A stretch of DNA of 64,000 bases, taken from Watersipora subatra (taxonomy: Eukaryota; Bryozoa; Gymnolaemata; Cheilostomatida; Watersiporidae). The notes beneath the pieces were generated by a model, which did no database searches, was not told where the DNA came from, and saw only the letters and a list, made by a program, of their open reading frames with translations. The stretch lies in NCBI RefSeq assembly GCF_963576615.1, contig NC_088712.1, positions 53,239,114-53,303,113 of the forward strand. The letters are read 5' to 3'. The translations under genes were made by a program, and so were the position numbers. This document shows positions 2,290 to 18,900 of the stretch, one piece after another. The number at the start of each line of letters is the position of its first letter. Position 1 is the stretch's first letter.

Positions 2290-2481
2290 GATTTTAGTAT
2301 CGATTGGAAAGTAATAAAAAGAGCTAAGGCCTGTCAGAATGGTGTTTCTAAGTGCAATCTATGCTTAACTGAGAAGTATTTTATAATTTTCCAGCCTTAC
2401 ATGGCTGATATAAGTGATATAGTAACGTCCTGTAGACACGTCACCAAATTTTACTTATCTAAGGCTAAGCTCACCAATTAA
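2290..2481 (+). pseudogene. Penelope-like element fragment: GIY-YIG endonuclease C-terminus
   Basis: Read from 2290 to a stop at 2479-2481, the 63 codons contain 'CNLCLTEKYFII' and 'TSCRHVTKFYLS'. These align closely with the C-terminal part of the GIY-YIG endonuclease of the larger Penelope-like element at 13.5 kb ('CNLCLYEKFYIIY', 'STCRHAGKFLLS'). In these retroelements the endonuclease follows the reverse transcriptase and nicks target DNA for priming. Only the tail of the domain remains and no reverse transcriptase lies upstream, so this is a 5'-truncated relic. A hammerhead-like motif follows about 70 bp downstream, the expected order for such an element's 3' end. Confidence 0.65.
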
Positions 2482-2545
2482 CCAATTTAGTAGCTAGGCT
2501 TTTATACTTGATTTGACCAAGTATTATACACAAGCACTTCACAAT

Positions 2546-2594
2546 AGCATCTGATGATTACTGCATGCATCATGAAACTTTAAGTAATAAACTG
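2546..2594 (+). ncRNA. Hammerhead ribozyme-like motif, probably decayed
   Basis: The hammerhead core boxes appear in order: CTGATGA (2551-2557), GAAAC (2574-2578), then a short ACT-TTA-AGT helix III and the predicted cleavage site after GTA (2586). Helix II is poor (only about TGC/GCA pairs) and helix I is weak. The motif is homologous to the better versions at 13.34 and 15.78 kb, so it looks like an old copy with doubtful self-cleavage. Confidence 0.45.
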
Positions 2595-3237
2595 TTGCTA
2601 AAACTTTTTCCATCTTTGTATTTATATATATATATATTTATATATATATAAGATATTATCGCAATATATATATATATATAAATATATATATATATATTTA
2701 TAACAGCCCTCAAATGGGCTCTTTGCACTAAATGTACTCAGTTTCAAACGCTCTGCGTTGGTCTCCGAAGGAGGCGTGTTTACAGAGCTTGAGAGTTTTT
2801 GAGCTTTTGTACATAGATTTTAGATTGTTGCACTCGAAATATAAAGCAATATATTTTTGCATTTGTGGAATTCTTTTTAAAATTGATTTTGTTGAAAGAT
2901 TGTTGTAATAAATCATTGATAATATCACTCTGTTGCTGTCATTGCGTCTACATCACTTCTCCAGTACTCGGTGAAAAGCGTTTTATGACTCTTGTCTAGA
3001 TAAGAGAAAGTTAATCAAACTGTCAGGTAAATATAAACACATTGTGTTGCACTACGTCAATAGGACATAGGAGAGCAATCCTAGGTAATTATGTTGGTCA
3101 CTGTTTCCTTGTCTCGAACCTCTCTGACTATTTACCAAATAACCTTAGGTTCAAACCCTCTCAGCTGACAAGGAAGGTCATGCTCTGGCACCCAGCCTGA
3201 TCAAACGGAAGGTAGGATTTCATCTATGGTTCTGAGG
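2595..3237. other. Upstream intergenic region of the VWDE-like gene
   Basis: About 2615-2705 is a TA microsatellite. The rest is low-complexity AT-rich sequence without a supported reading frame, and leads into the likely promoter of the next gene. Confidence 0.4.
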
Positions 3238-13296: not shown

Positions 13297-15930
13297 ATAA
13301 AATTGAGTAAAAATGAAAGTTAAAGTTAAGTTTAAAACAACTTTATTACTAATAGTTTCATATTGCCATGCAATAATCATCAGATAAAATTGTTAGCACT
13401 GAAAACGACTTATATATAGATGGAAATAAAAGCGTCGGTCTTAAAATACCTAAATACACCACTGATACGTAGGATTAAAATTAGCAAGCAACACGATTTA
13501 AAGCCTCAACAATGCAGAAGTTTAAAAGTTAAGTCTTAAAATTGCTTAAAAGGAATTTGCCAGCATGTCTACATGTTGAAACTAGTTCGCAGCGTTTGTT
13601 TAAGGTAGCAATGTTAGGATTGTATATAATATAAAATTTCTCATACAGACATAGGTTGCATCTGCCTGTGGTCTTGTTGTATGATGTAGCTCTTTTGACT
13701 ATGCTCCACTTGATGTTATATTCTATGCCTTGGTCTTTTAAGGTCCATATGTGCTTACTGAGCTCGGTGCTTGATCTTTTCTCTACATTTCTAAAGGTTG
13801 TCATATGATTGTAATAGCGTAGTTTGAATGTGGTGTCAGTCAATCCTATGTAATGTTCGTCCGCAGATTGATCATTGGTGGTGACTGTCGCCTTATATAT
13901 AATTGACTTGCTCAGGCACTTTCCTTGTAGTGGGCAGCCATTCTTATGTCGGCAGGCAGTTGCATTCTCTTGGTTCTGTAGTTATAGGGGTCTCATTGTG
14001 ATGCTGCAGCAATCTGGTATTATGAGCGCTAATGATACTGCTCACATTGTTCATACAGCTGTAGCTTAATTTCACAAAGTTTCTATTGAAGATCTTACGA
14101 AGAGCGTGTGATTTAGGGAACTCTGTGTCCAGGATATTAAAGAAAATCTTACCGATGTTATTAGCTACATTTTTGCTGAATGGCGGGTTGTACCATAGTA
14201 TCGGTCTTCGTCTGGTATTCTTGTCTCTGTTTTGCGCATTGTTTGTCGGGGCAGGCTGAAACACAAGCTTGTGTTTGTGTCCGCTTAGATTGAGTGCCTG
14301 CTGGTATATGTCAGTTTCGGTGGTAAATGTGGAGTTGTCTGATGACAGGCTGCTCAGTCTCCTATTTATACCTAGTGGTATGTTGTTTATTACTCCAAGT
14401 GGATGATTGGACTTGGCGTGTACATACTGTGGATGTGTATTTGGCTTGTGGTAAATTCTGTGTATACCGGTCGTCAGGTTTAGGTTTACATCTAAGAAGT
14501 TGGCCACCTTTTTGTTCGCCGATACAGTTATGCGTAGTCCGTTCTTGTGGAAGATAGAGCAGAGTTTTTTCTTGATTTTCTCAGCTTCTCTTGGGGTCTT
14601 GTTGGTTATTCCTAGGCCGTCATCTCGATATAAACCGAAAGTGTTGCCTATCTCATCTTGGATCTGCTTGAGTATATAGGCTCCAACCAGCTCACAGCAT
14701 TCCGCCCCATCATAGCTTCCCATAGTAATGTCAAATAACTCATTGCAGGTTTTCTTTTGCCATGGTGTATTTTGGCTGAACAGCAATGACTTTTTGGCGT
14801 GCATAATAGTGTTTATCTCATCTTCTGATATTTGCGTAACGGAGGATGCAAAATTTAGTGCGTCATTCATCAGTTGTTGTGTGATTGAAGGATAAAATTC
14901 AACCACGTCAAACTCTATAAATGTGTAATTGTTCTTGTTCTGGATATTGTTGAACCAGTTCAACACAGCTGTAGTATTCCTCCATTGGTGAATTTCGAGT
15001 TTGTGATTAATGTCTTTGTTGATTCGTTGCAGGATGATCTTACTAACTTTGCCAATCTCTGACTTGGTCGGATTAATCAGACGGCATGTTGGATTATTTT
15101 CGAAGTTAGCCTTATGATCTTTCAAAGTGATATAAGCTTCCCTCTCTGCAATAGTGTTGATTCTGTTACTTAAATCTAATTCGTCTGTAATGGTCTTGGC
15201 TTCGCTATTGATACCTGTGATAGTGTCTTTGTCTGCTTTCCTGTAATTAGTTGTTATGTTGTTCTTAAGCAGGGCTTTGTAGTTGTCCACCTCCAGTTTG
15301 TAATAGTTGTTGGATTTATCAGCTGGCACAATTAGTTTGTCACAGTTGGTGATATTATCACGAATATCACTGGATAGTTTACTCTGAAATTGACATCTAA
15401 CTTTTCTAAATTTGATGTTTCGTATCATGCACATTAGCTTGGTTTCAAAAGTAGACAGGTCTGGAATATGTGGTGGTGATTTACGAGATCTAAAACCGTA
15501 TGTGTTTTTCTTGCTTGTGTTTGCTTCTGGGTGTAAATAGAAGAAGGCCTTCCATCGCATTCGCTTGCAGAAGTCCTCAGTTCTTTCTATCAGTTTCTTG
15601 ATGTACTGTTGATCTGATGCAATAGGTATATTCTTGGTCGAATAACTAAACTTGGTAGCTTCCATAACAGCAAGATCTGAGAAAGTGCTCAACGATAGGA
15701 GCTCGTGTATACAGTAGATGCAGTATGAACAGTCTCTTGCATGAAAGTGCTCAATATTAAAATAGAGCGATGTAAAATTTTATCTGACGATTATTGCATG
15801 GCAATATGAAACTATTAGTAATAAAGTTGTTTTAAACTTAACTTTAACTTTCATTTTTACTCAATTTTACATCGCTCTATTTTAATATTGAGCACTTTCA
15901 TGCAAGAGACTGTTCATACTGCATCTACTG

Positions 15931-15961
<31 letters not shown>

Positions 15962-18900
15962 ATACATATACTTTTGTATATATACATTGAAATTTATCAT
16001 ACCTAGAACTAAAATCAGAGTGCTCAAAATAGAATAAAGCAGTATAAATTAGTAGAGAATTAGATAGTGTACTTATCTTTTGTCAGCTACTGGCAGTTTC
16101 TTGCTTACGCAATCATGAGGTTGAGATTTACAGCCTGATGATTGCGGAAGCAAGAAACTGACAGTAGCTGACAAAAGATAAGTACACTATCTAATTCTCT
16201 ACTAATTTAATGTATATGAACATTATATATATACATTAAATTAGTAGAAAATTTAATGTATATATAATGTAAATGTACATATTAAATTTATATATATATA
16301 TACATTTAATATGTACATTTACATTATATATAAATTTGATGTACATATATATTATATATACATTAAATTTATTTATATATATATATATATGCTTAAACAT
16401 AGATATACTATATATATACATGTATGTGTGTTTGTTATATATAAATGGTTGTGGTTTGTCTTCCCTTGTAAGAGCATCATATATTTCTCATAATTTCCAG
16501 GTAAGGTCATTTTATAAGAAATGCTCAGCTCGCTCAACAGTTACTTGTAACTGCGCTGTGGCAGCGAGGGCGGGTGATGATGTCATCATTGTGGATCGAT
16601 GTAATAGCATGGGAGATATTAAGATTTTTGGTAAGTGTCACAAAGGATGTTGCTGAGCTTACCTATGTCGTGTATGAATGGGGTGATGGAATGGTAGTCA
16701 ACAAAACAGGAAATTAGCCTAAACCTTTTGATTAATTAATGAATAAACATAACTTTTTTCATAAAATGTATTCACAAACCTACATAAAAGCATATGGTAT
16801 GTTTTTCTTTGCTTTGTAAGAGTAACAAAGCATTGAGTCAGCATTATGTGTCCTTCGTGACCCTAACATCTGTGGTGTCACTAACAACTTTGATAGAACT
16901 GACTGATGTGCCTTAACCATTGGTCTAATGGTGTATTGTGCAGTTGCAGGGGCAACATTTAGAAGACAACTCCTACCTAGGCTGCTTTACATTTATTTGC
17001 ATATCAGGTCCAGACAAAAAGGTGGAGTATAACTTGCTAAGAACTCGGACAATCTCAACTGATGACATCATTTCCCCTAATTTCAGGATATACGCTGTTA
17101 ATGGCGGCCGTGAATATCATGTAAGTAGATTTCTCAATCTCTTTGGTAACTCATTTATCGCTGTAAGACTTGGTCCTTTTGAACTGGTTCAACTTTCTAA
17201 TAATATTTATACTTAACATGTATGTATATGGCTCTAGTATATGGAAGCGTTATGCAAATAATATATGTATATTTTTGCTATACAGTAGACGCCGCTACAA
17301 CATAAATGTTTACGTTACAGAGACTTTCTGTTATACGAACAATAAAATACATGTGTATTGCCTAATTCGTTCCAGAATCTTCTCAAACTCATCCCTTTGG
17401 CCTTGCAAATTGGTAAACACTAAACTTAACTTTTTGATTTAATGAGTCTGCAGTAATTTGTGTTATTGTTGGTTTGTATCGACGATTTTTACCTTTTATC
17501 TTTTCATCTTCACTCAGTTTACGATTAATGATTCGAATAATTTCACGTTAGGGGGAGCGAACACCTGCAATGTCAATTTAATTTGATTTCTTTCCCTTTT
17601 ATGTCCAGCAAGGTCAAAGTCAAAACTGCAAAGATAAAAAAAAGTTATAGTTTATGTCTGATATATATATGCCGTTTTCTCTCCCAAATGAAGCAAGCGT
17701 GAAAATAGTACTTTTAAAGCTAACTTAAGCACTCTCATTATTTGAATTGAAATTTAAAACTTGTCCCGACTTGACGCTCTATGTTAGATAAAATTTCAAA
17801 CATAAACGTAAATTCCTTATGTTATAGGGGCGTCTACTGTAGCTCTATGTAATGACTCTACTATACTGGTAGCTCTATGTAATGACAAATACACTGGTAG
17901 CTCTATGTAATAACTCTACTATACTGATAGCTTTATGTAATGACTTTAATATACTGGTAGCTCTATGTAATAACTCTACTAAACTGGTAGCTCTATGTAG
18001 TAACTCTACTATACTGGTAGCTCTATATAATAACTCTGCTATACTGGTTGCTCTATGTAATAACTCTACTATACTGGCAGTTCTATGTAATGACTCTACT
18101 ATACTGGTAGCTCTATGTAAGGATTCTACTATACTGGTGGCTCTATGTAATTACTCTGCTATACTGGTTGCTCTATTTAATGACTCTACTATACTGGTAG
18201 CTCTATGTAATGACTCTACTATGCTGGTAGCTCTATGTAATGACTTTACTATACTGGTAGCTCTATGTAATGACTCTACTATACTGGTAGCTCTATGTAA
18301 TGACTCTACTATACTGGTAGCTCTATGTAATGACTCTACTATACTGATAGCTCTATACAATGACTCTGTTATACTGGTTGCTCTATGTAATAACTCTACT
18401 ATTATACTGGTAGCTCTATGTAAGGATTCTACTATACTGGTGGCTCTATGTAATTACTCTGCTATACTGGTTGCTCTATTTAATGACTCTACTATACTGG
18501 TAGCTCTATGTAATGATTCTACTATACTGGTTGCTCTATGTAATAACTCTACTATACTGGCAGTTTTATGTAATGGCTCTACTATACTGGTAGTTCTATG
18601 TAATGACTTTACTATACTGGTAGCTCTATGTAATGACTCTACTATACTGGTAGCTCTATGTAATAACTCTACTATACTGGTAGCTCTATTTAATGACTCT
18701 ACTATACTGGTAGCTGTATGTAATGATTAGGCTATACTTACAGCTTTAAGTAAATTTTGGTGTTGGGTCTTTGTAACACACATGTGTAATTCCTAATCGC
18801 GAACAGATATACTTCCCTCACGGAGCGATGGTGAAGGCACAGCTTACAGGGGGTGGATTTGCTCAGTTTATGAACCTCTGGATAACCCCATCACCCGCTG

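What the first reader, a model, noticed from the sequence alone, without database searches (positions are those of the whole stretch)
13299..15934. Penelope-like element with two hammerhead ribozymes in opposite orientation
Both terminal repeats carry a full hammerhead core with compensating helices: minus strand at 13341-13389, plus strand at 15778-15826. One is sense and the other antisense to the reverse transcriptase. A transcript spanning the element could self-cleave at its 3' end, while an antisense transcript could cleave at the other end. Hammerheads in Penelope-like elements are known; the inverted arrangement with a near-identical 93-bp repeat, inside a host intron, is less commonly spelled out.
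Basis: partly seen in the sequence, partly recalled or inferred. Interest (0 to 1): 0.75.

Follow-up and report, generated by a model that had tools for sequence, protein, structure and literature searches.

The report
Retroelement copied inward from both ends
This is a Penelope-like jumping gene with two self-cutting RNA motifs facing opposite ways, most likely because each insertion is copied from RNA at both ends of the cut target, so its copies help show how these poorly understood elements integrate.

Summary
The window element (13298-15934) carries a hammerhead on the minus strand (13335-13393) and one on the plus strand (15774-15832). Rfam misses both; a covariance model built without window letters finds them (60.4 and 53.8 bits).

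The inverted pair is not a fixed device. Of 37 copies, 29 consist of two 3'-anchored arms joined head to head, with 29 different junctions. Of 28 copies with both outer ends typed, 27 have one end with a tail of about 65 nt and one end without; the 28th has a full and a 20-nt tail. The two arms of a copy resemble each other more than random arms do. Arm lengths agree within 5 nt in 6 of 29 copies, 0.46 expected.

Best explanation: both cut target strands prime reverse transcription, from two adjacent start sites, usually on RNA of one source, and host end-joining seals the cDNAs.

Inverted pLTRs, one-sided tails and both-strand priming in vitro are published. I did not find the pairing rule or the same-source evidence in the papers I searched. 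Cleavage and the ribozyme's role are untested.

The parts
13298..15772 (-). Long arm of the insertion: one whole unit (2475 nt, called U; U1 = 15772, U2475 = 13298), 3' end outward at 13298 without tail
13335..13393 (-). Hammerhead of the long arm; predicted cut between 13347 and 13346
15776..15869 (+). Short second arm (U2382-2475), head to head with the long arm
15774..15832 (+). Hammerhead of the short arm; predicted cut between 15820 and 15821
15870..15934 (+). Tail (U1-65) on the short arm only, 3' end outward
15776..15779 (.). Junction of the two arms, 4-nt microhomology AATT
13947..15665 (-). RT-like frame from the ATG at 15665 (573 aa), contains YRDDG
13529..13981 (-). Endonuclease part (GIY-YIG-like pattern) in another frame; this copy's coding frame is broken
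   Evidence: unbroken 710-aa frames in L017, L021, L030, L036
13265..13297 (.). TA-rich target at the untailed end
15935..15970 (.). TA-rich target at the tailed end

Best explanation
The element belongs to a young Penelope-like family that inserts mostly into TA repeats by two-sided target-primed reverse transcription. Both target strands are cut and the 3' end of each primes copying of element RNA. One copy starts just downstream of a leader segment of about 65 nt (this leaves the tail), the other just upstream of it (no tail). Both cDNAs run inward, usually on the same RNA or on RNAs of one source copy, stop at different points or at a shared template end, and are sealed by host end-joining. 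The result is two arms with their 3' ends outward, each ending in a hammerhead, so the inverted ribozyme pair is a by-product of integration. Shown from sequence: ends, arms, junctions, shared alleles, the ribozyme fold by covariation. Inferred: priming on both strands, use of one RNA, order of events. Unknown: whether the ribozyme cuts and what for; 61 of 65 arms were copied as one piece across the whole ribozyme, so their templates were uncut or resealed there.
For: 29 of 37 copies are head to head with 29 different junctions: 11 with 1-4 nt shared, 2 blunt, 16 with 2-42 nt inserted. Of 28 copies with both outer ends typed, 27 have one full tail and one untailed end, 0 have two full tails, 0 have none. 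L045 and L050, copies of other families, show one tailed and one untailed end too. Arms of a copy: 60 mismatches in 13,483 sites against a mean of 0.0108 for random pairing, 0 of 20,000 draws as low; 51 shared minor alleles against 9 conflicts. Arm lengths equal within 5 nt in 6 of 29, permutation mean 0.46, 0 of 20,000. In 7 copies with flanks other than pure TA the same flank stands on both sides. A short non-autonomous hammerhead element shows 16 of 16 adjacent pairs head to head. A Penelope protein cuts and extends both strands in vitro from two adjacent internal start sites that bound the tail (PMC11167929).
Against: In vitro the Anolis protein showed no difference in start site between strands (PMC11167929), so it does not by itself predict the pairing rule. 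L016 has a full and a 20-nt tail. Five of 37 copies (L010, L012, L013, L014, L024) have one arm, L026 is chimeric at one end, and L031, L040, L044 could not be read to the other end. L017 has 3 sites where its arms carry different alleles that both occur elsewhere. Gene conversion between arms could also make them alike. L016 gave no flanking repeat. The copies were those most similar to the window copy, not a random sample; the tail rule in other families rests on two copies. One of the six equal-length cases is the chimeric L026.
Confidence: 0.7

Rival explanations
1. One-sided priming followed by self-priming (fold-back) of the nascent strand, as proposed on an antisense template in PMC3846280.
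For: Head-to-head palindromes and near-equal arms (10 of 29 within 35 nt); arms alike in sequence.
Against: Fold-back copying should reproduce the tail at both ends, yet 27 of 28 copies have it at one end. Most copies have clearly unequal arms and inserted bases at the junction.
Confidence: 0.12
2. The inverted structure is fixed and inherited, like the terminal inverted repeats of a DNA transposon.
For: Both ends are inverted repeats of each other and flank repeats exist.
Against: 29 different inner junctions in 29 copies.
Confidence: 0.02
3. Two separate insertions, the second landing inside or beside the first in the opposite direction.
For: TA repeats attract many elements here; a second hammerhead element lies at 16045-16209 in the window.
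Against: In the junctions listed the arms abut with 0-42 nt between them and no TA target between; the outer flanks repeat around the whole pair; arms share alleles.
Confidence: 0.06
4. One reading: a selected arrangement in which sense and antisense transcripts each cut themselves at one end.
For: Hammerhead core intact in 61 of 61 arms that hold it whole; its 59-nt stretch ranks 12th lowest of 707 overlapping windows in variation.
Against: Arm lengths vary by copy; predicted 94-nt duplex would trap the ribozyme; the hammerhead fold is not the minimum-energy fold of either 59-nt piece; one-armed copies exist.
Confidence: 0.1

Closest known systems
Penelope/Poseidon elements: Adineta vaga Pen2a (PMC3846280) and Anolis PAc (PMC11167929)
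   Same: pLTRs, an inverted pLTR at the 5' side, a tail at the 3' end of one inverted pLTR, 8-10 bp target duplications, AT-rich targets, both strands cut and extended in vitro, two adjacent internal start sites that bound the tail
   Different: Tail about 65 nt here against 31 bp in Pen2a and 30-40 bp in Penelope; one tailed and one untailed end in 27 of 28 copies; the hammerhead lies 3' of the coding frame, whereas in PAc it spans the start codon
Minimal type I hammerheads of Penelope-like elements (Cervera and de la Pena 2014; Lunse et al. 2017; originals not held, known through PMC6155905, PMC7229834 and PMC7761336 passages)
   Same: Core, minimal helix III, place in the pLTR; said to cleave possibly as dimers
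   Different: Here two copies stand inverted, so a sense dimer cannot form within one transcript of such a copy (inference)
L1 twin priming (recalled, not searched for its own sake)
   Same: Both target strands prime and the product has an inversion
   Different: In twin priming the second start is internal and the pieces do not overlap; here both arms start at the 3' region and overlap in sequence
Animal retrozymes (PMC7229834 passages)
   Same: Type I hammerhead in short tandem repeats; L048 holds 259-bp repeats with such a motif
   Different: The window element has an RT-like frame and a minimal ribozyme

Membership tests
Penelope-like elements | Reverse transcriptase of the Penelope type | tested here: inconclusive
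   FDVxxFYPSI and YRDDG motifs conserved in six families of this genome; no Pfam, NCBIfam or PDB profile match to an RT; single-sequence fold useless, pLDDT 32. What the motifs mean is recalled.
Penelope-like elements | C-terminal GIY-YIG endonuclease | tested here: inconclusive
   IYxAxV ... YIGL ... FKxR ... NH pattern behind a cysteine cluster in six families; no profile match.
Penelope-like elements | pLTRs from tandem or inverted second copies, optional tail | tested here: met
   Inverted arms in 29 of 37 copies; same-strand tandem units in L030, L031, L036, L040 and L046, L048; tail.
Penelope-like elements | Variable 5' truncation and target duplications | tested here: met
   Arms of 45-2632 nt; flank repeats in 7 copies, maximal match 14-16 bp in six and 23 in L037 with boundaries free to slide 6 nt; none in L016; pure TA sites cannot be judged.
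Minimal type I hammerhead | Core and three helices, open at stem I | tested here: met
   In the pair count 90% of cells pair and 22 cells change on both sides, 0 of 500 shuffles; one measure, further pair types, is at chance (303 of 500). Rows were picked with a descriptor that asked for stems, so the percentage is biased upward.
Minimal type I hammerhead | Match to Rfam Hammerhead_1 (RF00163) | tested here: not met
   on seven loci lists none among the 150 shown of 167. Best genome match 24.8 of 34 bits, elsewhere.
Minimal type I hammerhead | Self-cleavage after GUA | not testable with these tools
   Needs in vitro transcription.
Terminal-inverted-repeat DNA transposon | Same inner structure inherited by all copies | tested here: not met
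   29 different junctions in 29 copies.

The most novel reading that the evidence does not exclude
Penelope-type integration is a coupled reaction on one RNA. A protein dimer on the leader segment, which holds a conserved GCTCT...TTGAGCACT hairpin, cuts both strands of a TA site and starts one cDNA on each side of that segment, so each insertion gets one tailed and one untailed end, and both cDNAs run to the same template end. Short non-autonomous hammerhead elements of the same genome insert by the same two-sided reaction, and the ribozyme is kept uncut, or resealed, until copying is done.
Probability: 0.4. Interest if true: 0.72.

Novelty: new member of a known kind. Interest (0 to 1): 0.5.

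Why it matters
How Penelope-like elements integrate is stated to be little known (PMC11167929 abstract). This family is young and leaves clean records: the ends, junctions and alleles of 37 copies read like reaction products. They point to priming on both strands from two paired start sites, usually on RNA of one source, and explain why pLTRs are often inverted and why a tail sits on one side. That can be tested in the published in vitro system and in any genome with young copies. They also bear on the ribozyme: templates were not cut, or were resealed, when copied.

Tried and rejected
Rfam search for the hammerhead: no hit. Protein family and PDB searches for the RT and endonuclease: nothing relevant (two weak unrelated Pfam matches). 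Search of plasmid records with the protein: no match. Structure of the window frame alone: pLDDT 32, not used further. Host exons: no Pfam match; PDB matches of one exon look unrelated. tRNA search, bacterial code: none. I considered a fixed TIR structure, nested insertion and fold-back copying; see rivals. I looked for arms ending at the ribozyme cut (U2426/2427): none ends exactly there; L022 ends at U2430, L023 at U2424, L042 at U2419, L032 at U2435, so run-off at a cut template is not a main route. Of 9 arms that reach the start of the unit, 4 stop at U2469-U3 (window, L017, L021, L036 right) and 5 go on into the previous unit (L030, L031, L032, L036 left, L040); I read the first as a possible RNA 5' end, post hoc and unproven.

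Full report
What is there. The window lies on contig C5 of a 783.7-Mb genome without a name. Between 13298 and 15934 stands one insertion. Its coding strand is the minus strand. The long arm is one whole unit of 2475 nt (U), from U1 at 15772 to U2475 at 13298. At 15776 it meets a second, short arm in the opposite direction: U2382-2475 (15776-15869) followed by a tail, U1-65 (15870-15934). The two arms share AATT at the junction. Both outer ends stop in TA-rich DNA.

The ribozymes. Each arm ends in a hammerhead core with stems I, II and a 2-bp stem III. The upstream copy differs at the variable base of CTGANGA. Rfam does not see them, and RF00163 finds nothing over its cut-off among 73 scored of 61,516 candidates in this genome. 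I therefore looked at six loci of other families, chosen by the protein (about 50-54% identity, 50-55%). The descriptor finds a hammerhead in 6 of 6; L049 has a different one (cut after GTC) that model R1 does not reach at E<=0.01, so 5 of 6 by model, and four of these loci supplied the model (L048 and L050 share one sequence). R1, which holds no window letters, finds both window copies with E 1.7e-12 and 8.8e-11. In seven sequences 90% of cells pair and 22 cells change on both sides, above all 500 shuffles; the count of further pair types does not exceed chance. Rows were found by a descriptor that demands stems, which favours pairing. Random sequences give 0 descriptor hits in 150 trials. 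Of 65 arms of the family, 61 hold the whole ribozyme; the core is intact in 61 of 61 and 57 of 61 are identical over 59 nt. That stretch ranks 12th lowest of 707 overlapping windows in variation. Neither 59-nt piece has the hammerhead as its minimum-energy fold, as often with such minimal forms (inference).

The protein. The window frame is broken near 13947-13981. Copies L017, L021, L030 and both arms of L036 have an open frame of 710 aa. Six families share YRDDG, FDVxxFYPSI and a GIY-YIG-like pattern, but no profile library recognises the protein, and a fold of the single sequence is worthless. Calling it Penelope-like rests on these motifs and on the architecture.

Inversion is the norm, and each inversion is its own event. 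I read 36 further copies (20, 16) plus the window. They came from the best-scoring places (40 scored of 637 candidates, 40 of 452, 72 of 3371), so they are the most similar copies and not a random sample. In 29 of 37 two arms meet head to head with 3' ends outward; the 29 junctions all differ: 11 share 1-4 nt, 2 are blunt, 16 carry 2-42 extra nt. Of the other eight, five have one arm only (L010, L012, L013, L014, L024) and three could not be read to the far end (L031 and L040 at the edge of the stretch, L044 at a run of N). L026, counted among the 29, continues at one end into a different hammerhead element.

One tail per copy. In 28 copies both outer ends could be typed. In 27, one end runs on through U1-65 before the target and the other stops at U2475, give or take a few nt; L016 has one full and one 20-nt tail; none has two full tails or no tail (the left end of L033). 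The queries would have found copies with two tails or none. L045 and L050, from other families, show one tailed and one untailed end as well. Five leader segments share GCTCT...TTGAGCACT, which folds into a small hairpin in an alignment fold.

Same source for both arms. Within copies the short arm differs from the long arm at 60 of 13,483 sites; random pairing gives 0.0108 on average and never as low in 20,000 draws, also when L039 is left out. Arms share 51 minor alleles and conflict at 9 sites, 3 of them in L017. Arm lengths agree within 5 nt in 6 of 29 copies (5 of 28 without L026), within 35 nt in 10 of 29, against 0.46 and 1.6 by permutation. The simplest reading is that both cDNAs often ran to the same template end. 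Gene conversion between arms is a possible alternative for the sequence likeness, not for the equal lengths.

Target. Most sites are TA repeats. In seven copies with other bases in the flank the same flank stands on both sides (L011, L018, L025, L028, L037, L038, L043); lengths are uncertain because TA slides. L016 gave none.

Mechanism. The Anolis protein PAc cuts and extends both strands and starts at two adjacent internal sites that bound the tail; hammerhead mutants did not affect insertion in vitro (PMC11167929, parts 1-3 of 4 read). The arms here look like the products of such a reaction at a real target. What PAc did not show is that one insertion uses each start site once. A dimer with the leader hairpin between its two start sites would do this; that is my inference. 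Fold-back copying, proposed in PMC3846280 (passages, and section 6), should put the tail at both ends. The ribozyme's role stays open: 61 of 65 arms span it whole, so templates were uncut or resealed; no arm ends exactly at the cut.

What is known. PMC3846280 describes the inverted pLTR as typical, the tail on one of the inverted pLTRs, head-to-head as the most frequent arrangement, and 8-10 bp duplications. Hammerheads in Penelope-like elements, minimal and perhaps dimeric, are known (PMC6155905, PMC7229834, PMC7761336, passages). PMC8969392 and PMC12910113 were seen in passages only. I did not find the pairing rule or the same-source test in the nine searches made, which cover open-licence papers only; Craig et al. 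2021, Cervera and de la Pena 2014 and Lunse et al. 2017 are not held, so the claim of newness is weak.

Beyond the finding. A short hammerhead element at 16045-16209 has 79-nt head-to-head arms. Of 56 genome matches from 40 scored of 513 candidates, 16 adjacent pairs within 2 kb exist and 16 of 16 are head to head. This suggests that non-autonomous elements use the same route.

Noticed in passing
window 16045-16209: Second, short hammerhead element with head-to-head 79-nt arms, 95% complementary; descriptor hit at 16135 on the plus strand; 16 of 16 adjacent pairs of its relatives in the genome are head to head.
   Followed up: partly
window 2300-2618: Old 3' piece of another Penelope-like element: endonuclease-like end of a frame (by eye) followed by a hammerhead at 2541-2600 (R1 25.5 bits, E 0.0017), ending in TA repeat.
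   Followed up: partly
L048 4431-5201; also L013 7230-7395 and L024 5600-5800: 259-bp tandem repeats with a hammerhead like that of animal retrozymes; the same motif stands next to TA repeats beside two one-armed copies.
   Followed up: no
L026 1990-2300: The right arm passes from this family into a different hammerhead element before the TA target, as if the template had switched.
   Followed up: no
L046 867-988: Another head-to-head pair of hammerheads found by model R1.
   Followed up: no
L036 174-5294 and L039 249-3839: Two nearly whole units, and two arms of about 1.76 kb, standing head to head as long palindromes.
   Followed up: partly
L044 around 1887-2085: Run of N where the arms should meet; an assembly gap or a withheld stretch.
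   Followed up: no
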